NCBI GenBank assembly: GCA_947488345.1 | Contig: CANKZQ010000002.1 | Span: 186,001-250,000 of the forward strand | Length of the DNA: 64,000 bases | Source of the DNA: an uncultured Flavobacteriaceae bacterium | GTDB lineage: Bacteria; Bacteroidota; Bacteroidia; Flavobacteriales; Flavobacteriaceae | Direction: 5' to 3' | Shown here: positions 2,502 through 41,826 of the stretch, piece after piece | Layout: every line of letters starts with the position of its first letter | How positions within the stretch are numbered: the first letter of the stretch is position 1 | Position numbers and translations under genes: made by a program | The notes under the pieces: generated by a model | Database searches by the model: none | Seen by the model: only the letters and a program-made list of their open reading frames with translations | What the model was told of the DNA's origin: nothing

Positions 2502-2589
2502 AGGAATAACCCTGTAAAACACAAGGGAAAATTCTTTGAAAATAGAGGTATTTTCCTCTTGATTCACTTCCGTATGACATGTACATTTG
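2502..2589 (+). promoter_or_regulatory. Promoter with three 22-bp-spaced AGG-N6-CCT operator units (copy 1)
   Basis: AGG occurs at 2502, 2524 and 2546, exactly 22 bp apart. Each is followed by a CCT-like half (2511-2513 CCT, 2533-2535 TCT, 2555-2557 CCT), giving three inverted-repeat units. One base after the last CCT comes TTG (2559-2561) as -33, and 20 bp further TACATTTG (2582-2589) matches the Bacteroidota -7 box TAnnTTTG. The same layout recurs near 23.7, 35.3 and 41.8 kb. Transcription should start near 2596, downstream of the ATG at 2559, which argues for a translation start at 2694 or 2700. Confidence 0.75.
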
Positions 2590-2693
2590 TGGTGCTCTAC
2601 AATATTGCTAGTCAATATACAATAGTGTATAAAGCTGCCACTTTTGCTATGCCATCCCTTTCACCCCAATTGCAGCTTATCATTAAAAATTTT

Positions 2694-3995
2694 ATGACTA
2701 TGAAAAATGAGAAAAAGAGTGCTTGCTGTCCAGAGTTAACGGATGGGAAGAAATGTGATTACTTAGATTTTGTCTATCGTTTAACGCATCATACTGATGT
2801 GAGACTCGACAATCAAGTACGAAGAGTACCAGTTGAAGTAGCGTTGCATGTACGAGTAGAAAGATGTACAGGGCCACTTCAATTGGGTAATCTTGTGTAC
2901 AGCACAACCTTGTTGCCTGGAGAAAAAGTTCGTTTGTATACCCAAGATCGTCGATCGCGGTTTTCCTTTGATAGTGAAACACAACTATCGTACAGGCATG
3001 AGCAGACGGCTGAAGAGCAATTTTATTTAGATTCGTATGAGAAACTCATGTCTGATTTAGATAGCCGTGAAGATATTAACTCAAGCTCTTCAAGCAGCGG
3101 AAGTGCTAGTAGTGACGCTTCAACAAGTGGCATACTTGGTACTGCAATATTCGGTCCTTCTGCTTCAATTTCGGGAAGCTTTGATGCTTCCTCTACTAGA
3201 GATTTTATGAGAGAACTTAGCATCCATGCTGAAGCCAGTCATAATAAATCAATACAAATGACTCGTGAAACAAACGCCACACAAATAGGTGAGGTGTCAA
3301 CGCGTACGCATGCAGAAGGTGAAAGTGAAAGTCATGTAGAAAGCAGCAGCAGAACCTTCAACAATGAGAATAGATGTCATTCTGTGAGTTATTTGTTTTA
3401 TCAGGTAGATAAGCAACAAACCACGAAGGTGAGTATCAAGGCAATCAAAACTCGGGTTATTGATTTAGCAGCACCAAGTGAAGTTGTAAACAGACCTATT
3501 TTGACAAATACAAAACTCTCGGTGATACCAACGGCAGTATTGGCGACCTCAGAAAAGTTGCCAAGCAAGATTAAGGAGCTAAATGCCTTAGACAGAAGTG
3601 GCGTTTCTAATTTGAAAGCGGCATCATTTGCTGGAAATACCCGATTTAGTACGATACAACCAATGAGTGAAGCAGTTCGGTTGAAGGCTCTTGAGAATGT
3701 TCAAAATGAATTAGTCAAGGCCAAGATCATGACAAAAGATGGTAAAGCAACAAAGGAAACGATTGCTGACTTTTCATTTGAATTTCAAACGACAATTCCT
3801 ACTGCCGGCGTGGTGGTTAAAGGATGTTTAGATGACTGTAATGTATGTGAAGATAGCTTGATAGAAGAAATACAAGTAGATTTGGAGCATAAGAAATTGC
3901 AGAACAAATTGCTTGCAAAACAAATAGAACTGCTCGAAAAATCACAAGAATATAGATGTTGTCCTGTTGAAGAAACAGCCGAAGAAGATGCTTAA
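2694..3995 (+). CDS. Unrecognised Ser-rich, Cys-containing protein under a 22-bp-repeat promoter
   Basis: About 433 residues from ATG 2694 (ATG 2700 is equally possible). Longer in-frame starts exist (2559, 2649), but the promoter at 2559-2589 rules out the first. I do not recognise the family. Visible parts are: an N-terminal Cys cluster (ACCPE, KKCDY); a hydrophobic beta-rich section with LLPGEKVRLYTQDRRSRF; a Ser/Gly-rich stretch (about residues 129-146) followed by a flexible Ala/Ser/Gly segment; a polar helical region; a Cys cluster GCLDDCNVCED; and a C-terminal coiled-coil-like helix ending in RCCPVEE. No signal peptide or membrane span is seen. It stands alone with its own promoter and a strong terminator downstream. 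Paired Cys could bind metal or form disulfides. Function unknown. Confidence 0.8.
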   Translation: MTMKNEKKSACCPELTDGKKCDYLDFVYRLTHHTDVRLDNQVRRVPVEVALHVRVERCTGPLQLGNLVYSTTLLPGEKVRLYTQDRRSRFSFDSETQLSYRHEQTAEEQFYLDSYEKLMSDLDSREDINSSSSSSGSASSDASTSGILGTAIFGPSASISGSFDASSTRDFMRELSIHAEASHNKSIQMTRETNATQIGEVSTRTHAEGESESHVESSSRTFNNENRCHSVSYLFYQVDKQQTTKVSIKAIKTRVIDLAAPSEVVNRPILTNTKLSVIPTAVLATSEKLPSKIKELNALDRSGVSNLKAASFAGNTRFSTIQPMSEAVRLKALENVQNELVKAKIMTKDGKATKETIADFSFEFQTTIPTAGVVVKGCLDDCNVCEDSLIEEIQVDLEHKKLQNKLLAKQIELLEKSQEYRCCPVEETAEEDA

Positions 3996-4020
3996 ATCAA
4001 CAGTATCTATATCCTATGTT

Positions 4021-4051
4021 AAAACGGAAATTTTAACGATTTCCGTTTTTT
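4021..4051 (+). terminator. Rho-independent terminator after the Ser-rich gene
   Basis: AAAACGGAAA (4021-4030) pairs with TTTCCGTTTT (4040-4049) across a 9-nt loop and is followed by more T residues. The stem is perfect, and the T run suits termination of the plus-strand gene ending at 3995. Confidence 0.85.
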
Positions 4052-4142
4052 ACATTCATACCATGTGCCAGCCTCATATAATACGAAAACATTAAAGATG
4101 TGAAACACACTTTGAAAGAATTATTATATTTACTTCATATTT

Positions 4143-5258: not shown

Positions 5259-5343
5259 CATGACAAAATAGGTCTCATGACTTCGCATAGGTCGATTAAT
5301 AACTTTTGAATCTATTTCTTCGCAGAGTCAAAAAAAAATAGAT

Positions 5344-6588
5344 ATGCCAAATCACGTTAAGCTCAATAAATTTTTCTGTATCACCTGTATTGCTTTACTA
5401 ACCTTTACTTGTCAAGAATCCAAAAAAGAAATCTTAACAAAACGGCTTGAAGAAATTGCTACTCAAAAGTATTTACCTGGCTTTGCCGTTTCTGTTGTAA
5501 ATGATACCGAAATTATTTATCAAAATGCATTTGGTTTTGCAAACTTGGAAAGCAAAAAGCGATACAAGACATCCACAATTCAGTCTATAGCCTCAATATC
5601 AAAAACTACTATAGGGATCGCTTTAATGAAATTGGTTGAACAAGGTCAATTGAAATTGAGCACTCCAATTAATGATATAGTACCCTTCAAAATTTTTAAT
5701 CCAAATTTTAGAAGCGACCCAATTAGAATAATACATCTAGCAACGCATACTTCCGGTATAGTTGATACTGAGAATAATTATGATGATCGGAATAAATATT
5801 TCATCTCTGAAACCCTGATTGATAAAAAGAAAACACCGACCGACTGGTTATCATATTTTGATACTTGGAAAAGTAACAAGGCCTTAACTCTATCAGAGTA
5901 TTGTAATAAAACATTGAAGGAAGATGGAGAATGGTATCGAGTCGATTCCTATTCTAAGTATAAACCCGGCGAACACTACCAATACTCAAATATCGGAGCA
6001 AATTTAGCGGCTTATATTATCGAGTTGGTTTCGGATAAGACGTTTAAGGATTTTACTAAAGATTTCATTTTCCATCCACTTTCTATGCATGATGTAGCTT
6101 GGAATATCGATGAAATAGATAAAAATGAACTAGCGACTTCCTATGTTACCGAAGATCTTTTAGCAACTCCTTTCTTTGGAAATAGTACTTATGCTGATGG
6201 TGGACTTTATGCGTCGTGCCAAGATCTAAGTAAATATCTCTTGGAAGTAATTAAAGGGTATAATGGTCAAGGGACTTTGTTAGATATAAAGAGTTTCGAA
6301 GAAATGTTTGAAAAGCATTTGCCTGATGGGCTCACAAAACAAAGTAATCAAAAGAAAATTATGAATAGTGGTGTGTTTTGGATGCATTCTGTGAATGGCT
6401 CCATTTATCATAACGGAGGTAATCCTCTAGGTGGAACAATTTACATGTGGTTCAATCCAACGAATAATACTGGTCGAATCTTAATGACGAATTATTTAGT
6501 AGAAGAGAAGGAGTCCTATGTTCAGTTTATGGATATCTGGAAAGCTTTAGAAGAGTATTCTTTAAAGTCAACCGAATCTTCTCTCTAA
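5344..6588 (+). CDS. Serine hydrolase, class C beta-lactamase/PBP family, probable lipoprotein
   Basis: 414 residues. A hydrophobic N terminus ends at TFTC, a plausible though imperfect lipobox, so the protein is probably exported and lipidated. The beta-lactamase (PF00144) landmarks are all present: SISK as the SxxK nucleophile/Lys motif in IASISKTTIG, YSN in HYQYSNIGANLA as the YxN motif, and HNGG in place of KTG. Family members include D-aminopeptidases, esterases and PBP-like hydrolases, and sequence alone does not separate them. It is the first of three consecutive plus-strand hydrolase genes (5.3-9.2 kb) behind a membrane AraC regulator. True beta-lactamase activity is possible but not the default expectation for this family. 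Confidence 0.85.
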   Translation: MPNHVKLNKFFCITCIALLTFTCQESKKEILTKRLEEIATQKYLPGFAVSVVNDTEIIYQNAFGFANLESKKRYKTSTIQSIASISKTTIGIALMKLVEQGQLKLSTPINDIVPFKIFNPNFRSDPIRIIHLATHTSGIVDTENNYDDRNKYFISETLIDKKKTPTDWLSYFDTWKSNKALTLSEYCNKTLKEDGEWYRVDSYSKYKPGEHYQYSNIGANLAAYIIELVSDKTFKDFTKDFIFHPLSMHDVAWNIDEIDKNELATSYVTEDLLATPFFGNSTYADGGLYASCQDLSKYLLEVIKGYNGQGTLLDIKSFEEMFEKHLPDGLTKQSNQKKIMNSGVFWMHSVNGSIYHNGGNPLGGTIYMWFNPTNNTGRILMTNYLVEEKESYVQFMDIWKALEEYSLKSTESSL

Positions 6589-6657
6589 ATTAATTGAAAA
6601 TGTATTATTAAAACAAAAGAATTAAGAATACTAACCTTTATATTGACTCTTTGCATT

Positions 6658-7938
6658 ATGAAAAACAACAACATTATTTTTTTAGTCATAATTGTATTTT
6701 TTTTATCGGCTCACAAGCTTCATGCCTGTAGTATTTTTTGCGCAGTAAAAAAAGGAGAGGTATTAGCCGCTGGTAATGAAGATTGGTCAGATCCATTTTC
6801 CAAAATATGGATTCGGCCTGCTTCCGCAGGAAATTATGGGAGCATCAATCTAGGACATTCGGATTATCAAATTCAGGCGGCAATTAATGAACATGGATTA
6901 TTTTTCGATTTCGCATACATTCCAAAAGTAGAAGGTAAAAATAACATCAATAAGACACGTTTTGATGGAAATTTGTTTTCTGAGATATTAGACCATTGTA
7001 AAACGGTAAATGAGGCATTGGCATACTTGAAGAAACATCAATATGAATCATCAACAAATCAAATACTTTTAGCCGATGCAACAGGAAATTCTGTTATTGT
7101 AAATCAAGATATAATTCTAGGTAGAGATGGATCAAATTATCAAATCATTACCAATTTCAATGCATGTGAAATAAATACAGGAAATTACGATTGCAAACGG
7201 TTTCAGATAATTGATGAAGGACTATCAAATACTGATAGTATATCAATTCCTCTTTTTCGACAGTTATTGAGCAGGACGCATCAAGAAGGAACTCACCCGA
7301 CACAATATTCTTATATTTTTGACTTGAAAAGAGGTAATATTAAGTTGTATTCATTTCATAATTATGAAGATGCAATTTCACTGAATGTACAGAAAGAGCT
7401 TTCAAAGGGATATTACATACAAAACTTGAAAGACTTATTTCCCATCACTTTCGAAGAAGAATATTTCAGGCTACATCATAAAGATTCATTAAAGCAAAGT
7501 GTTCTCAAGGAAATTAGATCAAAAGGCGTGGAAAAAGGTCTTGCATATTATTCAACTTATAAAAAAAAATACCCGAAAGCTGGATCATATCCTTTTGTTT
7601 TATGGGATATTGGAGCAGATTTAGTCATGAATACTTGGTCTAAAGAAACGAGTGGCAAACCCTTTGATTATTGGTGGCACCCTCAAAAGTACTTACACTG
7701 GGAAACTAAAGATATTTCTGTGAATAATGCTCTGGCTGTATTCAACCAACTTGAAGAAGATATTAAAGGAGACGATCTAAGACAGTACATCGGCGTATAT
7801 GAAATGAAAGCCTTCATTTATAGATTACTTGATAATCGAGATAAGTCAAAACAATATCTCAAAAAAACCTTAAACGTGGCCACAGAAGAAACAGGAAATT
7901 ATCATCGTGCGAAGTATATACTTGACAATTTTGAATAA
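6658..7938 (+). CDS. Secreted Ntn-hydrolase, choloylglycine/penicillin V acylase-like (linear amide C-N hydrolase)
   Basis: 426 residues from ATG 6658; an upstream ATG at 6643 would add five residues before the signal peptide and is less likely. The signal peptide ends at HA|CS. Cleavage would expose Cys as the N-terminal nucleophile, as in choloylglycine hydrolases and penicillin V acylases. The following GNEDW carries the conserved Asp region of that fold, and IQAAINEHGLFF matches the family's inner strand. The C-terminal ~130 residues are helical and TPR-like (DKSKQYLKKTLNVA), longer than a minimal acylase. The substrate is an amide of unknown type (bile acid analogue, N-acyl homoserine lactone, penicillin or N-acyl amino acid). 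It lies between two beta-lactamase-fold hydrolases, probably in one transcription unit. Confidence 0.8.
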   Translation: MKNNNIIFLVIIVFFLSAHKLHACSIFCAVKKGEVLAAGNEDWSDPFSKIWIRPASAGNYGSINLGHSDYQIQAAINEHGLFFDFAYIPKVEGKNNINKTRFDGNLFSEILDHCKTVNEALAYLKKHQYESSTNQILLADATGNSVIVNQDIILGRDGSNYQIITNFNACEINTGNYDCKRFQIIDEGLSNTDSISIPLFRQLLSRTHQEGTHPTQYSYIFDLKRGNIKLYSFHNYEDAISLNVQKELSKGYYIQNLKDLFPITFEEEYFRLHHKDSLKQSVLKEIRSKGVEKGLAYYSTYKKKYPKAGSYPFVLWDIGADLVMNTWSKETSGKPFDYWWHPQKYLHWETKDISVNNALAVFNQLEEDIKGDDLRQYIGVYEMKAFIYRLLDNRDKSKQYLKKTLNVATEETGNYHRAKYILDNFE

Positions 7939-7984
7939 GACAAGTTTAAAAGTTTGCCTGAAGACAATACATACTAAATTTAGT

Positions 7985-10118: not shown

Positions 10119-10132
10119 GTTTCTATTTTTGA

Positions 10133-23699: not shown

Positions 23700-23789
23700 A
23701 GGAAAATTCCTTTATAAAAAACAGGTAAAATCCTGATAATAAAGGGGGAAAACCCTGTTGACATATACTCAATTTGATGCTTATTTTAG
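23700..23789 (+). promoter_or_regulatory. Promoter with three 22/23-bp-spaced AGG-N6-CCT units (copy 2)
   Basis: AGGAAAATTCCT (23700-23711), AGGTAAAATCCT (23723-23734) and GGGGAAAACCCT (23745-23756) repeat with periods of 23 and 22 bp. One base after the last CCT comes TTGACA (TTG 23758-23760) as -33, and TATTTTAG (23782-23789) is a near match to TAnnTTTG at the same spacing as in copy 1. The HNH/AAA operon starts at 23830. Confidence 0.78.
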
Positions 23790-23829: not shown

Positions 23830-26067
23830 ATGATCTATATTGATAGAAATAGAGTACCGATACCATCGTTACTTAAGAATGGAGAAAATCCATTAGAAGA
23901 AGAAATACTATTCAGGTTAAAAAATCGATCAAAATTTAAACAAGCACGTTTTAAAAGTGACGATAACTTTCTTAACGAAATATATGAAAACCTTATCAAA
24001 TTATTTGATAACAAATGTGCCTATTGTGAATCTGAAATCCTCAATAATGGCATAATCGATCGTTTTCGACCTTCTGATAGTGTTATAGATACAGAAGGTG
24101 ATTCCTATGAAGGGTATTACTATTTAAGCACGAGTTGGTTTAATTTGTATTTGAGTTGCCATGAATGTCATCGATATAAATCGAACTATTTTCCTGTGAT
24201 TGGAGCTCGTATTGACCCTCCTGATAGTCAAACGTATATTGATTATGGAAAGCTCAAGAATTATGTAAGTAAGGAGCAGGCATTATTGGTGGATCCTTGT
24301 GATATAGATGCTCATAACGAAATTCAGTTTAGATATCATCGGGATGGTCATGTCACAGCCCATACCAAAAAAGCAAATTACACAATAGAACTGCTCCAAT
24401 TAAACCGGTCTAATTTGATTCGTGAACGTGCCGAGCGCATCATTTTTTTAACCGAATTTCTAAATAACAACTCGTTTTCAGAGGATCTAAATGAAAAAGG
24501 AGAAGGGGTATTGTATCACCTGAAGGATATGCACGCTCATTTAGGGCTAAATCAGCAAATGATCGCAGAATGGTACTTGGCAAATGAAAAGCTTCTTGAA
24601 AAAGAATACTCATCATTGAACTACTTATTACTTAATGCCTTAGATAAAATAGTTCCAAATTGGAAATATTTAGGAAAAACTTCAAAAATATTATCAGATT
24701 TAAAATTCGAAGAAAACTATTTTAATGAAGTTTATGAGATAAAAAATAATGATGACAACCCCACATTCAAGGATAGTGAATCAAAGCCGAATCAAAGTTT
24801 TTCAAAATTTATGGAATGGGTTGAAATTACTGACTATAAGTGTATAAAGCATTTGAAGCTTGATATTCCCCAAATTGTAGAGGGAGCCGGTGAACAAAGT
24901 ATTTTACTTATTGGAGAGAATGGTGTTGGTAAAAGTACTGTGCTCCAAGCCATTTCATTAGCAATGCTTAGTAATAAACAGCTAAACCAACTGAAATTAG
25001 GGAACTATAATGATCTTATTCGATATGGGTCTAAATCTGAAAGGGCTACTATTCAGGTAAAGTTTCTAAATGAAGAAGAACCAATACGAGTAGAAATTAC
25101 ACCCACTAGTATCTCTTCAAATCGAGAAAATTTAGTAAAGCCAACAATAGGAATAGGTTCAGTAAGACGCATGCCAGAAGATGGAGAGAATGTAACATTC
25201 AACGATGATCCTTCACGTATTTTAGCTTTATTTAGACATGATGTAGTATTTCCAGATGTTGTTCCTTGGTTATCTGATGTCGATTCGGTCTCTCCACATC
25301 AATTCAATGAGGCCGCTAAGACAATTATTGATATGTTGATGATTCCCGATGAAATGATTTCTGAAGACCGTATGGTAAATCGGCGATTAGGTAAAGTAAC
25401 TGTCAATGTTGGTAATGGCCCAGAGTCTATTAAAAGCATGTGCGATGGTTACCGTTCGGTCATAGGTTATGCGCTGTATATTATGCGTTCGTTAAATCTA
25501 TATTGGGAAAGTGCTTATGATGCAGAAGGGCTGATAATTATAGATGAAATTGGTAATCATTTACACCCTACTTGGAAGATTAAAATTATATCATTATTAC
25601 GTTCTGTTTTTCCAAGGTGCACGCTCATAGTAAGTACACATGATCCGTTATGCTTACGCGCTGCACGAAAAGGAGAAGTTTGGGTGATGAATCTGGATAA
25701 AGAAATGCAAGTTCAACTAACACAGAAAGACATTCCGATGGGTATGTCTATTGAAAACCTTCTAATTGGTGACTGGTTCTATATGGATCATACAACTGAT
25801 GAACAAACAAGTCGACTTATTGAAGAACATAGCAAAGAATTGTTTAAAAAGAAGCCTGATCAAGAAAAAGTAAAGTTCATGGAGGCTCAATTAGAGCAGA
25901 CTGTTATGCAGACTTCTACAGGATTAAGTAAACTTGACACTTATTTGGATCTGGTGCGTGACGTAAAATCTGAAGAACAAAATGAATTTTCGAAAACACG
26001 TTTAGACCAGAATCCAGAATTAAGAAAGAGATTGGCAGATCAGATTAGACGTAAAATAAAGAAATAA
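23830..26067 (+). CDS. HNH-like/AAA-ATPase fusion protein (Septu PtuA-like ATPase with N-terminal TIGR02646-type domain)
   Basis: 745 residues. The N-terminal ~130 residues are an HNH-type fold with both zinc pairs (C63-x2-C66, C110-x2-C113) and the WFN and YKSNYFP motifs of the TIGR02646/PtuB family. The catalytic His position reads Arg, though (IDRFRP, against the usual E/D-H-x-R-P), so this copy may be inactive. After a helical middle comes an ABC/SMC-like ATPase: Walker A GENGVGKST (362-370), Walker B LIIIDE (568-573) and the H motif STHDP (602-606), as in AAA_15/AAA_21 nucleases' partners. The protein is cytosolic. The stop overlaps the next gene's ATG (TAATG), showing translational coupling to an intact HNH nuclease. 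An ATPase-plus-HNH pair is the core of the Septu anti-phage system; this arrangement differs by the fused degenerate HNH and a third gene. Confidence 0.85.
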   Translation: MIYIDRNRVPIPSLLKNGENPLEEEILFRLKNRSKFKQARFKSDDNFLNEIYENLIKLFDNKCAYCESEILNNGIIDRFRPSDSVIDTEGDSYEGYYYLSTSWFNLYLSCHECHRYKSNYFPVIGARIDPPDSQTYIDYGKLKNYVSKEQALLVDPCDIDAHNEIQFRYHRDGHVTAHTKKANYTIELLQLNRSNLIRERAERIIFLTEFLNNNSFSEDLNEKGEGVLYHLKDMHAHLGLNQQMIAEWYLANEKLLEKEYSSLNYLLLNALDKIVPNWKYLGKTSKILSDLKFEENYFNEVYEIKNNDDNPTFKDSESKPNQSFSKFMEWVEITDYKCIKHLKLDIPQIVEGAGEQSILLIGENGVGKSTVLQAISLAMLSNKQLNQLKLGNYNDLIRYGSKSERATIQVKFLNEEEPIRVEITPTSISSNRENLVKPTIGIGSVRRMPEDGENVTFNDDPSRILALFRHDVVFPDVVPWLSDVDSVSPHQFNEAAKTIIDMLMIPDEMISEDRMVNRRLGKVTVNVGNGPESIKSMCDGYRSVIGYALYIMRSLNLYWESAYDAEGLIIIDEIGNHLHPTWKIKIISLLRSVFPRCTLIVSTHDPLCLRAARKGEVWVMNLDKEMQVQLTQKDIPMGMSIENLLIGDWFYMDHTTDEQTSRLIEEHSKELFKKKPDQEKVKFMEAQLEQTVMQTSTGLSKLDTYLDLVRDVKSEEQNEFSKTRLDQNPELRKRLADQIRRKIKK

Positions 26068-26963
26068 TGTTACAATTTAAGCGCCCAAGAAGACCCAGAG
26101 GTTTTAAACAAAAAAGTACCGATCAGCTCGCAGTATTGGGTGAACCAGGAACAAATGGTTGGCCTAAATTCAATGATAAGTTTTGGCAGAATCTAAAACC
26201 AAAATTTATGAAAGCTCAGCATCAGAAATGTGGGTATTGTGAAATTCAGATTTCTGCAAATGGAGATGTAGAGCATTATCGACCTAAAAGTCAAGTTCAG
26301 AAATTAGTGGCAGAAGGTACTGAGTTGGCAAATAGTAGACGTTTAAAAGGGAGAAAAAGACCAGCGATCACCGAAAAAGGATATTGGTGGTTAGCTTATG
26401 ATTGGGATAACTATCTTCTTGCTTGTGCCATTTGCAATCAGAAATATAAGAGCGCTCTTTTTCCGATTGCTCCAGACCGTGAACCGAGAGATCATGTAAA
26501 ATTTAAAGCTGTCGATCCCAAAAAACAAGATTTTAAAAAGGAAAAACCATTATTAATTAATCCCTTTGAAAAAGAACTTAATCCGTTTGATCACTTTGAA
26601 TTTTTAAAAACAGGAATTATCAAAGCAAGAAATGATGACCAACGAGGAAAAGAAACGATACGCGTTTGCGGGCTGCGTCGTATTAGCCTATCGAGACAAC
26701 GAGCTCCAAAAGCTGTTGAAATTTGGGATGATGCCTTAGGTTTTTTAGATCCGAATAATTCAGCTAGGGAATTTAAAAGGCTCGCCGTTCGAATTTTCTT
26801 TGCTGGTCATGAAGTTAATTTATACGCAGGTATGGCTCGTATTATTTTTAAACAGATCACTTTTATGGACTGGAATGAATTGGAGGAATTAATTCAACAG
26901 GAAGGTTGGATGTCAGAAGTTGAAGAAAAGATAGAAATTGCTAGTACCTTACAAACATCATAA
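26067..26963 (+). CDS. HNH endonuclease (TIGR02646/PtuB-like)
   Basis: 298 residues. The zinc and active-site pattern is complete: C55-GY-C58, VEHYRPK with catalytic His70, YWWLAYDWDNYLLAC, C120-x2-C123-N and YKSALFP. This is the TIGR02646/PtuB type, which cuts DNA (or, in retron/Septu contexts, RNA) under control of a partner ATPase. A positively charged N terminus (FKRPRRPRGFKQK) may contact nucleic acid. It overlaps the ATPase gene by one base and is followed 10 bp later by the amidohydrolase, so all three form one operon. The nuclease fold is certain; a defence role is inference from the ATPase-HNH pairing. Confidence 0.88.
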   Translation: MLQFKRPRRPRGFKQKSTDQLAVLGEPGTNGWPKFNDKFWQNLKPKFMKAQHQKCGYCEIQISANGDVEHYRPKSQVQKLVAEGTELANSRRLKGRKRPAITEKGYWWLAYDWDNYLLACAICNQKYKSALFPIAPDREPRDHVKFKAVDPKKQDFKKEKPLLINPFEKELNPFDHFEFLKTGIIKARNDDQRGKETIRVCGLRRISLSRQRAPKAVEIWDDALGFLDPNNSAREFKRLAVRIFFAGHEVNLYAGMARIIFKQITFMDWNELEELIQQEGWMSEVEEKIEIASTLQTS

Positions 26964-26973
26964 ACAACTGCAT

Positions 26974-28734
26974 ATGTCAAACAAACAATCGAATACAGAA
27001 AACTCATTTATTAATGCACATACACATATTTTTCATGCAAAAGACACGCCAGCTCATTTGGCAAAAAAAATAGTAGTCTGGCCATTTTATTATTTCATAA
27101 ATACACATTGGTTTGTATCCTTGGCACAAAAGCTCCGTGCAAACAAATCAAAAGAGTATTCTTATAGGTCAAGAAATAAAGCTTGGCAAAAGTATTTAAC
27201 TTCTAGGTATTCTTTGTACGGATTTATAAAACGTTGCGTGCTATTTATTGCCAATATCGTATTCTTCTTTTATCTAGTGTATATTCTGCAGCCAATGATG
27301 GCATTTTGGCCCCTTGAAGGTTGGCTAAAACAATTTTATGAAAGTGAAGCGATTGACCAATTTTTATTCTTAGATAGAAGATTCGAATACCTCGTAATTC
27401 TACTCCCGTTATTTCTGTTATTTGTAAACCTACGTAGATCCTTATTCAAACTATTGGTCACTTATATCAAAACAAAATTTGGCAAAGAAAATATAGAATT
27501 CTATATACGATATAAAAACCTACTCTCTTTTGCGCGCTATGAAAAAAGCGCTAATATTTTTAGTAAGTTAAAAAGTCAATATCCTCCAGGAAGCAAATTT
27601 GTAACCTTACCTATGGATATGGAATTTATGAAGGCCGGTGCTATAAAAAGGTCGTATCGAGACCAAATGAAAGAGCTATTGACGCTAAAAAATAATAATA
27701 AGGAGATCATCTATCCCTTTTTATTTGCACATCCTAAACGCCTCAAAGAAGAAATCAACGGATATCCTTATTTTGCTGGGGCTCTTGATCAAGATGGTAA
27801 TTATCAACTACAGGAGTGTGATGTTAAATACTATTTTGAAAAGGGATGCGCTGGAGTTAAAATTTATCCGGCAATGGGTTACTATCCGTTTGATGAGGCT
27901 TTGCTACCATTGTGGCTCTATTGTTCTCAAAATGGAATCCCTATAACAACACATTGCTCGGTTGGTCCTATTTTTTATCGAGGAAATTTAAAAGACCTAC
28001 GACAGCCTATAGACCAGCATCCTGTTTTTAATCAAATAATTGAGAAAGATGAAAATGATAATGAGATTATTAAGGACTTACGACTACCCTTACATAAAAA
28101 CAGTGTGTTTCAGCGAAATTTTACCCATCCACTAAACTACTTATGCTTGTTGGATGAGAATTTTTTAAAGGATGTATTAGACTATTACAATAATGTTGAT
28201 CTTGACGACCTTTTTGGTTATGATCGTAAAGATAAAGCGAAAAAGCTTGATAGAAACTTATCGAATTTAAAAATCAATCTCGCTCATTATGGTGGAGCCG
28301 AAAATTGGGAGGAATTTTTATCTAAGGATCGTTATAACGAAGCTAATTATATAATTAATCGACCTACTGAAGGCCTCAGACTTCATAAAAGATTAAATAA
28401 TGACAAACCAACAATACTTTACAACGCTTGGCATTTTATAGACTGGTTTTCCATTATTTCGTCGATGATTTTAAATTATGAAAATGTGTATACAGATATT
28501 AGCTATACTACGCATGATCTTAAATATTTGAATCTGTTGTCTGAGATATTAGATAATGAGAAAATATCGAAACGCGTTTTGTACGGCACTGATTTTTATG
28601 TGGTGAGTAATCATAAAACGGAAAAGCAATATTGGATAGATATGCAGAATTCTCTGGGGTATAAAAAATGGAATAAAATTGCGAATATAAATCCGACCGA
28701 ATTCTTAACGAGCAATTCGAAGGGGTCAATATAA
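26974..28734 (+). CDS. Membrane-anchored amidohydrolase (Amidohydro_2-like), third gene of the HNH/AAA operon
   Basis: 586 residues from ATG 26974, 10 bp after the HNH gene; an upstream TTG would overlap it. The metal-ligand set of the amidohydrolase TIM barrel is visible: NAHTHIF (H16, H18), GVKIYPAMGYYP (K296), TTHCSVG (H327), LAHYGGA (H438) and YGTDFYV (D540). Between the HxH strand and the rest of the barrel sits an insertion with two membrane helices (about 84-105 and 138-154) and basic flanks, so the barrel is tethered to the membrane. Such an insertion is unusual for this superfamily. Known members hydrolyse or decarboxylate small cyclic or amide substrates; none is recognisable here. 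The operon context suggests a defence effector or nucleotide-processing role (inference). Confidence 0.8.
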   Translation: MSNKQSNTENSFINAHTHIFHAKDTPAHLAKKIVVWPFYYFINTHWFVSLAQKLRANKSKEYSYRSRNKAWQKYLTSRYSLYGFIKRCVLFIANIVFFFYLVYILQPMMAFWPLEGWLKQFYESEAIDQFLFLDRRFEYLVILLPLFLLFVNLRRSLFKLLVTYIKTKFGKENIEFYIRYKNLLSFARYEKSANIFSKLKSQYPPGSKFVTLPMDMEFMKAGAIKRSYRDQMKELLTLKNNNKEIIYPFLFAHPKRLKEEINGYPYFAGALDQDGNYQLQECDVKYYFEKGCAGVKIYPAMGYYPFDEALLPLWLYCSQNGIPITTHCSVGPIFYRGNLKDLRQPIDQHPVFNQIIEKDENDNEIIKDLRLPLHKNSVFQRNFTHPLNYLCLLDENFLKDVLDYYNNVDLDDLFGYDRKDKAKKLDRNLSNLKINLAHYGGAENWEEFLSKDRYNEANYIINRPTEGLRLHKRLNNDKPTILYNAWHFIDWFSIISSMILNYENVYTDISYTTHDLKYLNLLSEILDNEKISKRVLYGTDFYVVSNHKTEKQYWIDMQNSLGYKKWNKIANINPTEFLTSNSKGSI

Positions 28735-29154: not shown

Positions 29155-29850
29155 TTATAATTTTGCCAACACTTCCAATTTTTCAAAAACTACAATCTTA
29201 TACATAGCACTCACGGGCACTTTAGTATGTTCAATATACAACTGTGTTCTAGTTGCTTTTGTAACTCTATTTAAATTGGCAATATATGATTTATGTGTAC
29301 GCTGAAAATGCTCGGGTAAAGAACTGGTAATATGAATTAGTGTTTCAGAAATTAGATACATTCTTGAATCGGTAAAAATCTTCAAATAATTTCCAAAACT
29401 TTGAATATATTGAATAGATCCAAAAGCAATATTTACCGGCATACCATCATGTTTTATTTGAAGTTCTTCCTTGCCAATGTGCTTCTTGCCTTGTGTTATT
29501 TTTGAAGCTACCACTTTGTTAATTGCTTTCAAAAAGCGTTCAATTTTAATAGGTTTTAATAAATAATCAACGACACCATAATTATAACTTTCTAAGGCAT
29601 ACTGAGAATAGGCCGTTGTTAAAATAACTTTTGGGGGTTTGAGCATAGAACGCAAAACTTCCATGCCATTAAGTTCGGGCATTTCTATATCTAAAAAAAT
29701 CAAACCTAGGTCGTTTGATTGTACGAAATTGACAAGTTCAAGCGGATTACCAGTACTTAACACCAATGTAAAGTTGTCAATTTTAGCACAATACTCTTCC
29801 AACACTTTGCGCGCTAGAATCTCATCATCTATAATCCCTATTTTTATCAT
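29155..29850 (-). CDS. LytTR-type response regulator
   Basis: 231 residues. The receiver domain has acidic pocket residues IIDDE, phospho-acceptor D54 in IFLDIEMPELNG, and the conserved Lys in YLLKPIK. The C-terminal ~100 residues are a LytTR DNA-binding domain (IQYIQSFGNYLKIFT, FQRTHKSYIANL). LytTR proteins bind pairs of direct repeats about 21-22 bp apart. This gives a weak reason to consider it for the 22-bp arrays in this window, but no array lies next to it. It is 11 bp downstream of its LytS-type kinase. The pair lies divergent to the 31-34 kb hydrolases. Confidence 0.93.
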   Translation of the reverse strand: MIKIGIIDDEILARKVLEEYCAKIDNFTLVLSTGNPLELVNFVQSNDLGLIFLDIEMPELNGMEVLRSMLKPPKVILTTAYSQYALESYNYGVVDYLLKPIKIERFLKAINKVVASKITQGKKHIGKEELQIKHDGMPVNIAFGSIQYIQSFGNYLKIFTDSRMYLISETLIHITSSLPEHFQRTHKSYIANLNRVTKATRTQLYIEHTKVPVSAMYKIVVFEKLEVLAKL

Positions 29851-29861
29851 TAACTCTTTAT

Positions 29862-30854
29862 TTACTCTGTTAAATCGATGGATAAATTTACTCGATATTC
29901 TTTTTCTCTATCATCTATTTTTAATTCATGAGAATTAGGATACAATAGTTTTAAACGTCTTCTTACGTTTTCAAGACCTAGCCCTTCTCTATGTGATATA
30001 GAAACCTGAGAAGGCTTCGAATTTACTACGCAAAATTGAAGTGTGCTATTTTTAATAGACGTAGAAATATCAATTGAACTTTGATTATTAGTACTTTGAG
30101 CACCATGTTTGACTGCATTTTCAATAAATGGTATGAGCAACATTGGAGCAATTCTTAAGTCTAAAAAGTCTCCATCGATTAAAAATTCAATAGCACAACG
30201 TTTACTGAGTCTTTTTTCTTCAAGTAACAAATAATTTTCTATAAATTCAAGTTCTTCTTTTAATAATACGGTATCGTTTTTAGAGCTCTCCAATTGATAG
30301 CGCATGAGTTCCGACAACTGCATAACAAGATCTGGAGTTTCTGGCGATTGCTCCCTAGAAAGGGAGTAAATACTATTTAGCGAATTGAATAAAAAATGCG
30401 GATTTACTTGCTCTTTTAAATAAGTAAGCTCCATCTCTTTTTGTAATTTCTCTTTCTCAGTATTCTCTCGTTGGATGATCATATTTCTCCTTAAAAAAAA
30501 AGCAGCCATCCCAGTACCTGTTGTATAAAAATGAAATAAAAAAGTTTTAGTAACACCCGACCAGTTGTTTTTAGTATACGCTTCTAAATATGCCACAAGA
30601 AATATGCTCGCAATAAGTAAGAGCCCGTAGATAACATATCTTTTCTTATCAAAAAAGTATGGAATAAGAATAAAATGATTTATCCATATTGCTGCCATAA
30701 TATTAAAGGCATATTTAAGTCCCCACAAAAAAAAAGAAAAAGGGGTATCATATCGATCAACGATCATCCATCCACTTAATAGTTCAAGAATAAGCACCAA
30801 TAGAAAAGCCCCAATGTTAAGGAGTATGGTATTCTGTAAAGACTTTTTAAGCAT
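29862..30854 (-). CDS. LytS-type sensor histidine kinase
   Basis: 330 residues. Four hydrophobic segments in the first ~140 residues make a membrane input module without a recognisable ligand domain. The kinase part carries the His_kinase signature LKEQVNPHFLFNSLNSI, with the phospho-accepting His before FLFN. An ATPase domain follows with the N box PFIENAVKHG and the late glycine motif REGLGLENVRRRL. It pairs with the LytTR regulator encoded 11 bp downstream, and the two genes form one unit. Its signal is unknown. The divergent serine hydrolases at 31-34 kb are possible targets (inference). Confidence 0.93.
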   Translation of the reverse strand: MLKKSLQNTILLNIGAFLLVLILELLSGWMIVDRYDTPFSFFLWGLKYAFNIMAAIWINHFILIPYFFDKKRYVIYGLLLIASIFLVAYLEAYTKNNWSGVTKTFLFHFYTTGTGMAAFFLRRNMIIQRENTEKEKLQKEMELTYLKEQVNPHFLFNSLNSIYSLSREQSPETPDLVMQLSELMRYQLESSKNDTVLLKEELEFIENYLLLEEKRLSKRCAIEFLIDGDFLDLRIAPMLLIPFIENAVKHGAQSTNNQSSIDISTSIKNSTLQFCVVNSKPSQVSISHREGLGLENVRRRLKLLYPNSHELKIDDREKEYRVNLSIDLTE

Positions 30855-35118: not shown

Positions 35119-35424
35119 TTGTATCATCATATCGCACAATCATAGAACTTGAGGCTGTAGTGTCAAAAATGTATCGATGTCATTGCCATAACTGAAGGCA
35201 TAATATCACTTAATGATTATATCGTACAAGAGCCGAGAGAGCTATTTAGAATAGCATAATTAACATCGATTGAATTAGTCAGGAATTCAAGTAAAACCCC
35301 TACATCTTTCAGGAAAAACATCCCTAAAAAAAAGGAGGCAAACCCTGTAAATAAAGGGGAGAAAGCCTCTTGACACTACCACTATTTGCAGCTAACTTTG
35401 GAGTCTAATTCTAAATCTATACAT
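35119..35424. other. 306-bp gap with a 22-bp-repeat promoter and no gene
   Basis: The 3' half holds the third copy of the repeat promoter (separate entry). The 5' half has a short protein-like frame (about 35172-35260, containing IISLNDYIVQEPREL) bounded by stops; it is too short to call. Confidence 0.5.
35289..35400 (+). promoter_or_regulatory. Promoter with 22-bp-spaced AGG/CCCT units (copy 3)
   Basis: AGG at 35311, 35333 and 35355 repeats at exactly 22 bp, with CCCT-like halves at 35322-35325, 35343-35346 and CCT at 35366-35368. A weaker fourth unit (35289-35301) precedes them. One base after the last CCT is TTGACA (TTG 35370-35372) and, 20 bp on, a perfect -7 box TAACTTTG (35393-35400). 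Geometry equals copies 1 and 2. The ATG at 35425 follows the predicted start of transcription by about 18 nt. Confidence 0.8.
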
Positions 35425-35949
35425 ATGAAAGTTATTCAGCTTGCTACTAAGATTTTTGGACTTCTAATTTTTATAACTAGCGTCAATAGTACGTTTGCAC
35501 AACAGAAACTACAAGTGGTTACAAACACTTCATTTAGCTGTTCATCAAATGCAGAATGTAAAAGAAAGTGTGAAGCGCTTGGCAGCGACCATACATGGAA
35601 ACCGAATCCAGGAGGATCTACCTTTGGTACCTGTACAAAGAGAAGACAATTCTTACCGAATGGTATTGAGATGGACTCATTCCCTCAACATCATGGAATT
35701 TTCGTTGAAACTACCGCTAATGACAGCTCTTTTCATAAATCAAAATCAAAGTTTATACTTGGATTAATGAAAAATAAGAAGTGGCATAAAGATACGGTGG
35801 CACCACCTTCGGTACCATTAACAATCTTAGAATGTGAATCATTGGGTGGTACGGTACAATATCATCCTGGTTGTAGTACAACATTACTAAAATGTTCTAA
35901 TAGAGGATATGCAGCATGCATCACGAAAACAGTGTTGACTACGAAATAA
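35425..35949 (+). CDS. Small secreted Cys-rich protein under the 22-bp-repeat promoter
   Basis: 174 residues from ATG 35425. The in-frame ATG at 35386 lies inside the promoter and is rejected. A signal peptide ends at STFAQQ. The mature N-terminal part has the spacing C-x5-C-x3-C followed by a Gly-rich loop and FGTCTKR, loosely like defensin-type Cys frameworks. A central Lys/Ser-rich linker leads to a second block with four Cys (LECESLGG, PGCSTT, LKCSN, AACITK). It could be a disulfide-bonded exported peptide or small structural protein. No family recognised; any toxin or antimicrobial role is speculation from the Cys pattern. Monocistronic. Confidence 0.75.
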   Translation: MKVIQLATKIFGLLIFITSVNSTFAQQKLQVVTNTSFSCSSNAECKRKCEALGSDHTWKPNPGGSTFGTCTKRRQFLPNGIEMDSFPQHHGIFVETTANDSSFHKSKSKFILGLMKNKKWHKDTVAPPSVPLTILECESLGGTVQYHPGCSTTLLKCSNRGYAACITKTVLTTK

Positions 35950-36064: not shown

Positions 36065-36811
36065 ATGAATACTTTCTTAATTATGGAATGTGCAACTATA
36101 TATTATGATAGGCCTCATTACTTTCCGATGCATTTACATCCGGACAGATATACCTTTTCCTATATAATAGATGGTGGCGCTTACCTGTTGAACAATAGAT
36201 CAGTATATACCTTAGAACAAGGTGATTTAGTAATTATACCTCCGTATGTGTCGCATCAAACCCTCATAGAAAGCTTTTTTCATTATAAGGTCATACGAGT
36301 TCCTAAATTACATTCATTTGTTGGTTTTGATCAAAAGAAAGGTGGATTAACAATAATAAGAAACAACCCTTTATACAAAGACCAATACGATCAATGGTTT
36401 GAAGCAGTTAGAAATAACACCACTGAAAACCGCGACGTTTCTAAAGTATTCGAACAATTTTTAGTAAGCGAAGACGGATCGTTATCGACTTCTAAAATTA
36501 TTTTAAAGAAGGCTTTAATTCATATCGAAAATAACTTTCATAGAAAAATATCAATAGAAGAGCTTTCAGATATCACACACTTAAGTGAAAGCCATTTTCA
36601 GCGTATTTTTAAGTCAAACATAGGAATTTCGCCCACGCGTTATCTGCAAAATCTACGCATAGAAAAAGCCAAGGAGCTTATCAAAATTAGAAATTCATTT
36701 ACAGACATTGCTTATGACACGGGTTTCTTTGATCAAAGTCATTTCAATAAATATTTCAAAATTAATGTTGGCATGATCCCAAAACGATATGCAGATATCG
36801 TTAAAAGATGA
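36065..36811 (+). CDS. AraC-family regulator with N-terminal cupin, next to dialkylglycine decarboxylase
   Basis: 248 residues. The N-terminal half is the AraC cupin (FPMHLHPDRYTFSYIIDGG, LEQGDLVIIPPYVSHQ). The C-terminal ~95 residues hold two HTH motifs (ISIEELSDITHLSESHFQRIF; IAYDTGFFDQSHFNKYFK) with the expected spacing. It is soluble, unlike the membrane AraC proteins elsewhere in this window. A TAATTTTG box (36056-36063) directly abuts the start; if it is the -7 element, translation may begin at the ATG 36083 instead. The dgdA-like gene starts 58 bp downstream, so this is a likely local regulator of amine or dialkylglycine use. Confidence 0.9.
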   Translation: MNTFLIMECATIYYDRPHYFPMHLHPDRYTFSYIIDGGAYLLNNRSVYTLEQGDLVIIPPYVSHQTLIESFFHYKVIRVPKLHSFVGFDQKKGGLTIIRNNPLYKDQYDQWFEAVRNNTTENRDVSKVFEQFLVSEDGSLSTSKIILKKALIHIENNFHRKISIEELSDITHLSESHFQRIFKSNIGISPTRYLQNLRIEKAKELIKIRNSFTDIAYDTGFFDQSHFNKYFKINVGMIPKRYADIVKR

Positions 36812-36869
36812 TAGAATTTTACAATTTTAAGAGGTAGTAATACCTGAACTTGCATAGAAAATTAAGATT

Positions 36870-38409: not shown

Positions 38410-38447
38410 TACTAAACTATAACCTGAAGTTAAGTTTAGTATTTTTG
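38410..38447 (+). promoter_or_regulatory. Inverted repeat overlapping a -7 box upstream of the GH16 gene
   Basis: TACTAAACT (38410-38418) and AGTTTAGTA (38433-38441) form a perfect 9-bp inverted repeat whose right arm runs into TATTTTTG (38440-38447), a TAnnTTTG match 17 bp before the ATG. A short direct repeat TTGTATAGG/TTGTATAGG (about 38389-38408) lies just upstream. This is likely an operator/promoter for the glucanase. Confidence 0.55.
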
Positions 38448-38463
38448 AAAAAAACTAAATTAC

Positions 38464-39546: not shown

Positions 39547-39579
39547 GTCGATTTTCTTGTTGATATAAAGCTAAAGTAC

Positions 39580-39600
39580 TATATCTATAATTATGTGTAA
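39580..39600 (+). repeat. 21-bp direct repeat, left copy (possible island boundary)
   Basis: This sequence, beginning TATATCTATAATTATG and ending TGTAA, is identical to 49840-49860, and both are preceded by CTAAAG about 10 bp upstream. The two copies lie 10.26 kb apart in the same orientation and bracket the Shedu, toxin-antitoxin and ubiquitin-like genes. No integrase is seen between them. Confidence 0.6.
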
Positions 39601-39862
39601 GTTGCGCACGGCAATTATATGTTTTATTTGAGTTCGTAAATAGTAGTATTAGTATAGTTATATGTTGTTTTGCTTTGTTCACTTCCTTTTGACTTTATAT
39701 TGAATGAGCTCATGAATCTTTATATGATATTTGGCTTTCGTCGAATCTTATTCTTCGATTTATTCACTAGATTTCTATTGTTTTAGAGGATCTCATGAAT
39801 ATTAAAATAGTTCCCTATTTTAATATTTGGTAAAAGCAATTATATCTACAATTCTTTATAAA

Positions 39863-39950
39863 GTTTTCCTTTGGGAGTTTATCTACAAAAGTTAATGAAA
39901 CATTCATTAAGCAAACCAACATAGGAGGTAAGCGAATTGTTTAGAATCAA
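39863..39950 (+). repeat. ~90-bp intergenic repeat, copy 1
   Basis: Aligns with 44281-44368 over about 88 bp, sharing AAGTTTAT/GAGTTTAT, AATG.AACA, TTA.GCAAACC.AC.TAGG.GG.AAGC and GAAT blocks. Shorter relatives occur at 35994 and 29118. Function unknown. Confidence 0.5.
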
Positions 39951-39975
39951 CTTAGAAATTATAATAACATCAAAT

Positions 39976-40701
39976 TTACTCTTTGTTTTTTTCTTTATTC
40001 TCAGCAACGGACCTCTCAAGGTTTTTAAACGATTCACTAAGACTAGCTATATATGAAATCAAAACATTATTCATGTTTTTGGCATTTGTTTTTATTGCAA
40101 TAACGCTCGAATATACTTCTTTTAAGTTTTCAACATATAATTTTGCATCATCTATTTTCATTGTCTTTTTAGCAACATTTACATCACCTAAAGTAGAACT
40201 AATATTTATCAAGTGCTCATCTATATTTTCACTAAAAGTGAATATTTGTTTGCCTACAGTATTAGCTGCTGATCCTTTTGTTGCGGCAAGAATTGCTTTC
40301 TTTTTATCATTTAGTTGATTCCACCTTTTCTTGAATTCTATTGCAATCCTTATATTGGATTTTTGTCTATCTGCCTTTAAGATATCTTCAAGAAAAAAGT
40401 TATTACTTAGAGATTCCATAGCACCAATATCATCAAACAAATTACTAGAAACCGCGAACACTTTATTAACCCTTTCTAAATTTGAAATATCTTTATTTAA
40501 ATCTTGAATTGAGGTTCTAACTATTGCAGGTAGCTCTTCCTTTGCTGCCCTCTTCTGTCGATTGGAAGCTTTATCACCAAATATTTTTTCCACTAATGGT
40601 ATAACTAATTTACCAATGGTCTCTATAGTTTCAATTTGAGCATTAACTGAAGTACTTATTGTAAAAAATAATACAATTAATAAAGTTCTAAATTTTTTCA
40701 T
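39976..40701 (-). CDS. Exported, mostly helical protein of unknown function (second gene of the 22-bp-array operon)
   Basis: 241 residues with a signal peptide ending SVNAQ. The mature part is nearly all amphipathic helix with long heptad-like stretches (TSIQDLNKDISNLERVNKVF, LYVENLKEVYSSVIAIKTN) and no Cys. An N-terminal segment IGKLVIPLVEKIFGDK is moderately hydrophobic. The overall look is a helical-bundle exported protein. Pore-forming helical toxins can look like this, but so do many other proteins, so no function is assigned. It lies 25 bp downstream of the lipoprotein gene at 40727-41716 and very probably shares its promoter at 41.77 kb. Confidence 0.78.
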   Translation of the reverse strand: MKKFRTLLIVLFFTISTSVNAQIETIETIGKLVIPLVEKIFGDKASNRQKRAAKEELPAIVRTSIQDLNKDISNLERVNKVFAVSSNLFDDIGAMESLSNNFFLEDILKADRQKSNIRIAIEFKKRWNQLNDKKKAILAATKGSAANTVGKQIFTFSENIDEHLINISSTLGDVNVAKKTMKIDDAKLYVENLKEVYSSVIAIKTNAKNMNNVLISYIASLSESFKNLERSVAENKEKNKE

Positions 40702-40726
40702 GACTTGTAAGGTTTGATGATTAATG

Positions 40727-41716
40727 TTATTTATTTTTAAAAATTATAGTCTCGTTTAATTTAAGTTTATCATAATGAGCATCTCTATATTTTAAAATAC
40801 CTTTTTGTTGTAATAAATATGGATTATCATTATTAGCAATAGCATCTTTTAACAATTTTTTTGCCATCTCATTGAAGTCTCTAATGCTATTTTCAAGGAG
40901 GCTTTCATAATGTTTTTTAAAATTATCAATGTCAGAATTTTCGCTCAAAGATTTAAGATGGGTAATAGCCTTCTCATCATGATCGAATGCATCTTTAGGA
41001 GGTCCATTTTTGTAACAACAATTATTTATTTTATTTAAAAAAGAAAAGTAGTCAGATGTTAATGATTTTAAAAACTTGTACCTTTTTGGTTCATCTTTAC
41101 ATTTTTTATTTGCCTCATCTTTTAAACTCATTAATTTTAACCAGTCAATATAAATTTGTTTAATCGTTTTTTTTAAATTTTCAGACCCGGTACCTTCATT
41201 AATAACTTCAATATTTCTTAAATTGAAAATTATTGCTCCTGTACTAACAATTATATCTTTTAGTAAATAATTTGCCATTGAATAATCAACAATATTGGCC
41301 TTATATTCTATCCCTTTCATACTAAGTTCTGAATTCGAAAATAATGTACTATCGAGTGGTTTAAAAAAATACAATTTTTGTTCAATCAAATTATTAATGG
41401 ACTCTAAAGAATGTTGATTCAACAGCACTTTGGAGTTCTTAGATAAGGAAAAAGCGCTATCTACTGCTTCGTTTAAAGATTTTATCTCATTTTCAAAAAC
41501 CCCATCAATCAATTGAGCATTTTCTTTAAATATTGGTTTGTAATGTATTTGGTAATCATCTCTTTCGTCTCTTGCATTGCTTTCAGCTTCAATATCTTGT
41601 CCATTGACATGCTCTATCCCGTCGAAGGCACTATCGGCTCCTTCTTTTACTTCTTTACATGAATGAATGATAAGTATTAAAATGATCTTAAATAATAGAA
41701 TTTGTTTATTTTTCAT
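40727..41716 (-). CDS. Helical lipoprotein of unknown function (first gene of the 22-bp-array operon)
   Basis: 329 residues with a lipoprotein signal (IIHSC at residues 16-20). The mature part is rich in Lys, Asn, Glu and Asp, mainly helical, with a short Cys cluster (KCKDEP, NNCCYKNG). No domain is recognised. Promoter copy 4 of the 22-bp repeat family lies directly upstream, reading toward this gene. The next gene encodes another helical exported protein, so the two may work together (inference). Its strong A/T bias matches the neighbouring island genes more than the flanking 50-60 kb genes. Confidence 0.78.
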   Translation of the reverse strand: MKNKQILLFKIILILIIHSCKEVKEGADSAFDGIEHVNGQDIEAESNARDERDDYQIHYKPIFKENAQLIDGVFENEIKSLNEAVDSAFSLSKNSKVLLNQHSLESINNLIEQKLYFFKPLDSTLFSNSELSMKGIEYKANIVDYSMANYLLKDIIVSTGAIIFNLRNIEVINEGTGSENLKKTIKQIYIDWLKLMSLKDEANKKCKDEPKRYKFLKSLTSDYFSFLNKINNCCYKNGPPKDAFDHDEKAITHLKSLSENSDIDNFKKHYESLLENSIRDFNEMAKKLLKDAIANNDNPYLLQQKGILKYRDAHYDKLKLNETIIFKNK

Positions 41717-41739
41717 GGAATTTAATGGCTAGGCAGGTA

Positions 41740-41826
41740 AAATTGTATTTTTTTTTAATATGAGTCAACAGGATTTTCCCCTTTTTTTAACAGGATTTTT
41801 CTCTTGTCATTTAGGGTGTTTTTCCT
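41740..41826 (-). promoter_or_regulatory. Promoter with three 22-bp-spaced units (copy 4, minus strand)
   Basis: Read on the minus strand, CCT-type halves lie opposite AGG at 41770-41772, AGG at 41792-41794 and GGG at 41814-41816 (22-bp period). The AGG-like halves lie opposite CCT at 41780-41782, CTC at 41801-41803 and CCT at 41824-41826. One base beyond the last CCT is TTGAC (TTG 41766-41768), and TACAATTT (41747-41740) is a weak -7 box. This mirrors copies 1-3 and drives the lipoprotein at 41716. Confidence 0.72.

What the first reader, a model, noticed from the sequence alone, without database searches (positions are those of the whole stretch)
2502..41826. One unusual promoter architecture used at four loci: three 22-bp-spaced inverted-repeat units locked to the -33 element
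At 2502-2589, 23700-23789, 35289-35400 and 41740-41826 (minus) the same design appears. Three AGG-N6-CCT-like units sit at a 22-bp period, the last CCT lies exactly one base before the -33 TTG, and a TAnnTTTG-type -7 box follows (weak in copy 4). The downstream genes are unrelated (Ser-rich protein, HNH/AAA/amidohydrolase operon, secreted Cys-rich protein, pair of helical exported proteins). The 22-bp spacing is about two helical turns, so one regulator could stack on one DNA face next to RNA polymerase. This points to a coordinated regulon. The regulator is unknown; LytTR proteins bind repeats of similar period, but the link to the gene at 29155 is only a guess.
Basis: partly seen in the sequence, partly recalled or inferred. 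Interest (0 to 1): 0.85.

Follow-up and report, generated by a model that had tools for sequence, protein, structure and literature searches.

The report
BvgA-like promoter arrays and their regulator
Four promoters in this bacterium carry the same stacked docking sites, and comparison with relatives points to one two-component regulator that reads them and probably switches on defence genes, secreted proteins and small RNAs together.

Summary
The four arrays are real and beyond chance. They belong to a regulon: nine strong sites in the own genome, and matches in 16 of 17 genomes of the genus and 43 of 299 of the family. The unit is an inverted repeat, AGG-N6-CCT. Units stand 22-23 bp apart and end 1 bp before the -33 TTG; the -7 box is at fixed distance. 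This is the architecture of BvgA promoters in Bordetella (passages of PMC7250471).

The LytTR guess fails: orthologs of that gene are in 3 of 17 genomes of the genus. The likely reader is a NarL/FixJ response regulator with a HisKA_3 kinase, encoded elsewhere in the genome. An array lies 2.4-3.1 kb from it in 13 of the 14 genus genomes that have it. In the family, 26 of 27 array-positive genomes (E<=1e-4) have it, against 58 of 272 others.

Targets include a Septu-like operon (array 2), small RNAs without Rfam match and, in other genera, contractile-injection operons. Binding and activation are inferred, not shown.

The parts
2502..2557 (+). array 1: three units at 2502-2513, 2524-2535, 2546-2557
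   Evidence: 42.8 bits with relatives' matrix; closely similar array and flank in G002 (L076)
2559..2589 (+). promoter 1: -33 TTG 2559-2561, -7 TACATTTG 2582-2589; predicted start about 2595
   Evidence: start inferred
23700..23756 (+). array 2: units 23700-23711, 23723-23734, 23745-23756
   Evidence: 49.3 bits
23758..23789 (+). promoter 2: -33 TTG 23758-23760, -7 TATTTTAG 23782-23789; predicted start about 23794
   Evidence: start inferred
23830..26067 (+). PtuA-like AAA ATPase (Septu-like defence), 745 aa
   Evidence: PADLOC PtuA E 5.4e-129; AAA_21
26067..26963 (+). PtuB-like HNH protein, 298 aa
   Evidence: PADLOC PtuB E 1.2e-46
26938..28734 (+). amidohydrolase-like third gene, 598 aa
   Evidence: Amidohydro_2 E 9.4e-7; no PADLOC match
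35311..35368 (+). array 3: loose outer unit from 35311, middle unit about 35333-35346, unit 1 35357-35368
   Evidence: 38.8 bits
35370..35400 (+). promoter 3: -33 TTG 35370-35372, -7 TAACTTTG 35393-35400; predicted start about 35406
   Evidence: start inferred
35425..35949 (+). gene under array 3: 174 aa, probably secreted (by eye), no Pfam or PADLOC match
41770..41826 (-). array 4: outer unit 41826-41813 (AGG-N8-CCT), middle 41803-41792, unit 1 41781-41770
   Evidence: 52.4 bits; similar arrays in relatives L062-L065
41738..41768 (-). promoter 4: -33 TTG 41768-41766, weak -7 CAATTTTA 41745-41738; predicted start about 41732
   Evidence: start inferred
40727..41716 (-). first gene under array 4: 329 aa, probably exported (by eye), no Pfam or PADLOC match
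39976..40701 (-). second gene under array 4, 241 aa, no Pfam or PADLOC match

Best explanation
The arrays are activator sites of one NarL/FixJ-type two-component system, used in the manner of Bordetella BvgA. The response regulator (RR; own copy G000:C7:150570-151214, minus strand, 214 aa) follows its HisKA_3 histidine kinase in an operon divergent from an array-driven transcript. Phosphorylated dimers bind each inverted repeat; two to five dimers line up every 22 bp on one face of the DNA; the last abuts the -33 element and helps RNA polymerase with the primary sigma factor (TAnnTTTG -7 box). Targets are genome-specific genes (here a Septu-like operon and proteins of unknown family), small RNAs and, in other genera, a contractile-injection operon next to the same two-component system. 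Shown here: array geometry, recurrence in the genome, genus and family, co-occurrence and linkage with the regulator. Inferred: protein-DNA binding, activation rather than repression, phosphorylation, the signal, and that the small RNAs are transcribed.
For: Geometry: 93 deduplicated sites chosen by unit and TTG criteria in loci that R1 or R2 had fetched (a few are probably false). Unit 1 GG/CC 90-98% and the TTG are partly or wholly selected; unit 2 at 22 bp in 46 and 23 bp in 28; third unit with at least 4 of 6 matches in 37; -7 TTT at TTG+27..29 in 75/92/80% (R2's training included that box). Outer half-site positions match their mirror as often as independence predicts (for example 0.92 against 0.92; 126 units), as for a dimer and unlike a hairpin. 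Regulator: one of eleven GerE matches in the own genome (L181) is about 3 kb from an array; REC+GerE, kinase HisKA_3+HATPase_c; closest solved relatives include NarL 4.6e-31, VraR, DevR, DesR, EvgA, RcsB. Linkage: RR in 14 of 17 genus genomes (11 of 11 at least 90% complete); array 2354-3095 bp away in 13 of 14; in the fourteenth, G005, the RR starts at base 507 of its contig. In other genera array and RR are 1.9-2.4 kb apart in six genomes: G058, G121, G323, G209, G244, G216. Of 20 RR neighbourhoods of other genera (20 of the first 21 by RR score; G232 left out), 9 hold an R2 match below E 1e-3 (102 kb); four of these (G323, G121, G209, G058) were known beforehand, so 5 of the other 16. Control: 0 of 9 loci below E 0.1 (110 kb). 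Co-occurrence: 26/1/58/214 genomes, p 4e-15; by genus 20/1/47/168, p 1.9e-11. Literature: BvgA dimers at 22 bp, last one abutting -35, Pfha primary site of the form A-A-G-N6-C-C-T (passages); GerE domain beside 25.8% of eCIS loci, with a kinase gene upstream in 9% of those (passages of PMC8213781).
Against: No binding or expression data. At E<=1e-3, 10 of 43 array-positive genomes lack the RR (all ten with best array E of 5e-5 or weaker), and 51 of 84 RR-positive genomes have no array match, so either arrays in other genera diverge from the own-genus model or the link is looser. The tests are not corrected for phylogeny beyond counting by genus. 11 of 20 other-genus RR neighbourhoods have no R2 match below E 1e-3. 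The linkage would also be seen if the two-component operon were only a target of another regulator. G003 and G015 have array matches but no RR found (68% and 86% complete assemblies).
Confidence: 0.8

Rival explanations
1. The arrays are read by another, unlinked regulator, and the NarL/FixJ two-component operon is merely one of its conserved targets or neighbours.
For: Binding was not tested; 51 of 84 RR-positive genomes show no array match.
Against: In the genus loci read, the array promoter points away from the two-component operon; palindrome, 22-bp spacing and abutting of -35 are what a NarL/FixJ regulator of BvgA type does; 20 of 21 array-positive genera have the RR.
Confidence: 0.14
2. 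A LytTR response regulator, such as the one at 29155-29850, binds the arrays as 22-bp direct repeats.
For: LytTR sites are direct repeats of similar period (recalled); the gene lies between arrays 2 and 3.
Against: Ortholog in 3 of 17 genus genomes against array matches in 16 of 17; each unit is itself an inverted repeat with both halves conserved. Other LytTR paralogs in these genomes were not tested one by one.
Confidence: 0.03
3. The units are hairpin-forming or mobile palindromes (REP-like elements) that happen to sit before promoters.
For: Units are palindromic and repeated.
Against: The -7 box keeps its distance to the array in the 93 sites; outer half-site positions do not covary and the A-tract core is not palindromic; the units lie upstream of the predicted start.
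Confidence: 0.03

Closest known systems
BvgA-activated promoters of Bordetella (Pfha, Pptx)
   Same: Head-to-head dimers, centres 22 bp apart, most proximal dimer abutting the -35 element; the Pfha primary site has the layout A-A-G-N6-C-C-T (passages of PMC7250471).
   Different: Here the core promoter is the Bacteroidetes -33/-7 type, units are regular along the array, the kinase found is a 260-aa HisKA_3 protein, and targets include small RNAs, a Septu-like operon and, in other genera, eCIS operons.
GerE regulators next to eCIS loci (PMC8213781)
   Same: LuxR-type regulator, sometimes behind a kinase, beside contractile-injection loci, proposed there as a two-component system regulating them (passages). 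The RR beside the eCIS-like operon of G058 is 56% identical to the own one.
   Different: The passages seen name no binding site. Here one is proposed, and arrays and RR are present in genomes of the genus without the tube family PF06841 (found in 2 of 17), with other targets.
GacA/UvrY control of regulatory small RNAs
   Same: NarL/FixJ regulator driving small RNAs through an upstream inverted repeat (site recalled; a BarA-UvrY paper seen as a listing with start of abstract).
   Different: Here several stacked units abut the promoter; the RNAs have no Rfam match at gathering score in the 20 loci searched.

Membership tests
NarL/FixJ response regulators | Receiver domain plus GerE (LuxR-type) helix-turn-helix | tested here: met
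   Response_reg 88 bits and GerE 44.1 bits, both over cut-off; NarL 4.6e-31 in PDB sequences
NarL/FixJ response regulators | HisKA_3-type kinase gene next to it | tested here: met
   HisKA_3 38.4 bits, HATPase_c 38.6 bits; kinase 6211-6993 and RR 5570-6214 of L186 overlap by 4 bases
BvgA-type stacked activation | Inverted half-site units at 22-bp centres | tested here: met
BvgA-type stacked activation | Most proximal dimer site abuts the -35 element | tested here: met
   Unit 1 ends 1 bp before TTG in the four window copies; in the 93 sites this was a selection criterion and is no test
BvgA-type stacked activation | Phosphorylated dimers on one face with alpha-CTD on another | not testable with these tools
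   needs footprinting
LytTR regulator sites | The proposed LytTR gene present where arrays are | tested here: not met
   ortholog of the 29155 gene in 3 of 17 genomes; array matches in 16 of 17
Septu defence system (operon under array 2) | PtuA ATPase and PtuB HNH nuclease adjacent | tested here: met
   PADLOC E 5.4e-129 and 1.2e-46
Septu defence system (operon under array 2) | Protects against phage | not testable with these tools
   needs phage challenge
Bacteroidetes primary-sigma promoters | TAnnTTTG -7 box at fixed distance from the -33 TTG | tested here: met
   Boxes in the four copies, weak in copy 4; TTT at +27..29 in 75/92/80% of 93 sites (R2 training included the box); consensus from passages of PMC9723704

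The most novel reading that the evidence does not exclude
A Flavobacteriaceae-wide 'arms' regulon: one conserved NarL/FixJ two-component system, reading a BvgA-like array code, co-ordinates contractile-injection particles, defence-type genes captured by array promoters (Septu here; patatin-like and LmuA-like genes in relatives) and families of tandem small RNAs, so that unlinked weapon and defence genes can be found by their arrays.
Probability: 0.35. Interest if true: 0.85.

Novelty: new variant of a known kind. Interest (0 to 1): 0.7.

Why it matters
To my knowledge few transcription-factor regulons of Flavobacteriaceae have been mapped. This would link a cis code that can be read from sequence to a named regulator class across many genera, give eCIS-associated GerE regulators a candidate binding site, and put a defence-type operon and small RNAs under the same switch. 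It can be tested directly in culturable relatives.

Tried and rejected
LytTR link: rejected. eCIS as the general target: not general, since the tube family PF06841 is in 2 of 17 genus genomes and not in the own one. Hairpin or REP reading: rejected. Rfam: nothing at gathering score in 20 loci or the window; the ten matches with E up to 1 were all below gathering score and taken as chance. The Septu-like operon in L001-L003 has no array match below E 0.1. The R1/R2 hit at C1:1449476-1449559 lies inside a coding sequence and is a false positive. Other own hits of intermediate score (C1:299673, C1:155249, C2:409895, and C1:109883 for R1) were not counted. The 93-site set uses loose criteria and holds a few sites that look false. 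The alignment of 13 family-A RNAs is poor outside the core (mean column identity 44%), so no covariation is claimed. Two of five family-C stretches folded did not begin at the RNA's 5' end and are not used. The Pfam scan of the truncated sheath-like gene of L254 gave no family; sheath-like genes are named by eye. An iterated matrix drifted to both strands of the palindromes and was discarded. PMC5399024 (another two-component system) held none of five terms. Literature searches aimed at these arrays, RNAs or their regulator; nothing describing them was in the rows shown, which are the top rows of longer lists. PMC9723704 was seen as outline and passages; its small-RNA sequences (Rfp18 and others) and supplements were not seen, so identity of family C with one of them is not excluded.
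Full report
1. The observation. The four arrays are present as described, the last unit ending 1 bp before the TTG and a -7 box 23-24 bp from its first base. Copies 3 and 4 are less regular: the outermost unit is AGG-N8-CC-like. A weight matrix made from relatives' sites alone (39 of 82 sites outside the own genome, those with unit 2 at exactly 22 bp) gives the copies 38.8-52.4 bits; elsewhere in the window the best is 3.5 bits, and 300 Markov-1 sequences of the window's length reach at most 20.9. A loose pattern search is much less telling (20 matches against 11.8 expected).

2. Genome, genus, family. A sequence-only covariance model of the four copies (R1) found five further arrays before a TTG in the own genome, on contigs C7 (two), C5, C1 and C6. 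A model of these nine (R2) scores them at E<=1.7e-8 and has matches at E<=1e-3 in 16 of 17 genomes of the genus. With R1, 14 of 16 other genomes of the genus and 0 of 23 genomes of other genera matched. With R2, 43 of 299 genomes of the family match (35 of 236 genera), and 7 of 296 drawn over the phylum, four of them outside the family.

3. Geometry. From 93 deduplicated sites picked by units and TTG: unit 2 at 22 bp (46) or 23 bp (28), a third unit in 37, -7 TTT at +27..29 in 75/92/80%. With the -7 box at -12 to -5 (passage of PMC9723704), TTG is at about -36 and unit centres at about -43, -65 and -87 (my arithmetic). Outer half-site positions vary independently, which fits a symmetric protein dimer.

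4. The regulator. Unit form and period suggested the NarL/FixJ family (RcsB and GacA sites recalled; BvgA checked in passages). Eleven GerE matches lie in the own genome. One, L181, is about 3 kb from an array. Its gene (214 aa) follows a HisKA_3 kinase, a membrane protein and a lipoprotein-like gene, and the array lies at the divergent end of that operon. The RR is in all eight genus loci fetched around such arrays (gene order read in four). By coordinates an array is 2354-3095 bp from the RR in 13 of 14 RR-positive genus genomes. Over 299 genomes the RR class separates by score (237 bits or more against 209 or less; 84 positive genomes copied by hand). It is present in 26 of 27 array-positive genomes at E<=1e-4 and in 58 of 272 others; at E<=1e-3 in 33 of 43 and 51 of 256. 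In six genomes of other genera the array is again 1.9-2.4 kb from the RR.

5. Targets. Array 2 drives a Septu-like operon (PtuA, PtuB) with an amidohydrolase-like gene; relatives of that operon in L001-L003 show no array, so the array seems acquired here. First genes after arrays in relatives include a patatin-like phospholipase (L275), an esterase with an LmuA match (L279), an ECF sigma factor (L282), a hybrid two-component regulator (L272) and M19-peptidase-like proteins (own L036; L277); many others have no family. In other genera the RR operon is divergent from a contractile-injection-like operon at six of 20 loci (L239, L240, L242, L246, L250, L254; sheath-like genes by eye, tube by Pfam in L246). 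A five-unit array, one unit imperfect, precedes that operon in L254; weaker units lie in the gap in the other five. Geller et al. (PMC8213781 passages) had already proposed GerE proteins as eCIS regulators.

6. Small RNAs (transcription inferred). Several arrays precede no long open reading frame. Family A, next to the two-component operon, has an invariant core GGG...TTGCTAT in 13 of 13 aligned genus loci. Family B, convergent to a gene that looks like an aldehyde dehydrogenase (by eye), ends in a terminator-like hairpin in the four sequences read (L038, L088, L128, L138). Family C, in other genera, comes in tandem modules of about 170-190 bp. One search lists 17 cores, of which one site is listed twice (L160 and L198, both G309), so 16; 15 of 16 lie 37-38 bp after an array TTG (the loci were fetched because of arrays). 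The three complete ones folded show a hairpin with a GGGG loop followed by a terminator hairpin (z -3.5 to -4.9).

7. Limits. No expression or binding data exist here. The co-occurrence is strong but not tree-corrected, and 51 of 84 RR-positive genomes show no array with this own-genus model. The regulator assignment is therefore an inference with about 0.8 confidence; the existence of the regulon is firmer.

Noticed in passing
L149, L153, L154, L159, L160, L166, L167, L171, L173, L174 (other genera): Small-RNA modules (family C, core AGCTTAATTAATTGGGGAGTTAATAAAAGC plus a terminator), in several loci in tandem and often beside a creD-like operon (named by eye); no Rfam match at gathering score in those searched.
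   Followed up: partly
L040, L136, L074, L126, L131, L133, L141, L144, L265-L269: Family-A RNA next to the two-component operon, with GCTATGAA motifs, repeated in several of them.
   Followed up: partly
window 23830-28734: Septu-like operon with an extra amidohydrolase-like gene.
   Followed up: partly
window 29155-30854: LytTR response regulator with LytS-type kinase; ortholog of the regulator in 3 of 17 genomes of the genus.
   Followed up: yes
L065: Array-like units before TTG on both strands of one intergenic region, perhaps a bidirectional promoter.
   Followed up: no
L282 (G016), L146 (G011): ECF-sigma-factor gene as first gene after an array (Pfam for L282; L146 by similarity of its N-terminus), a possible second regulatory layer.
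   Followed up: no
window 36065-36811: AraC-type regulator just downstream of the array-3 gene.
   Followed up: no
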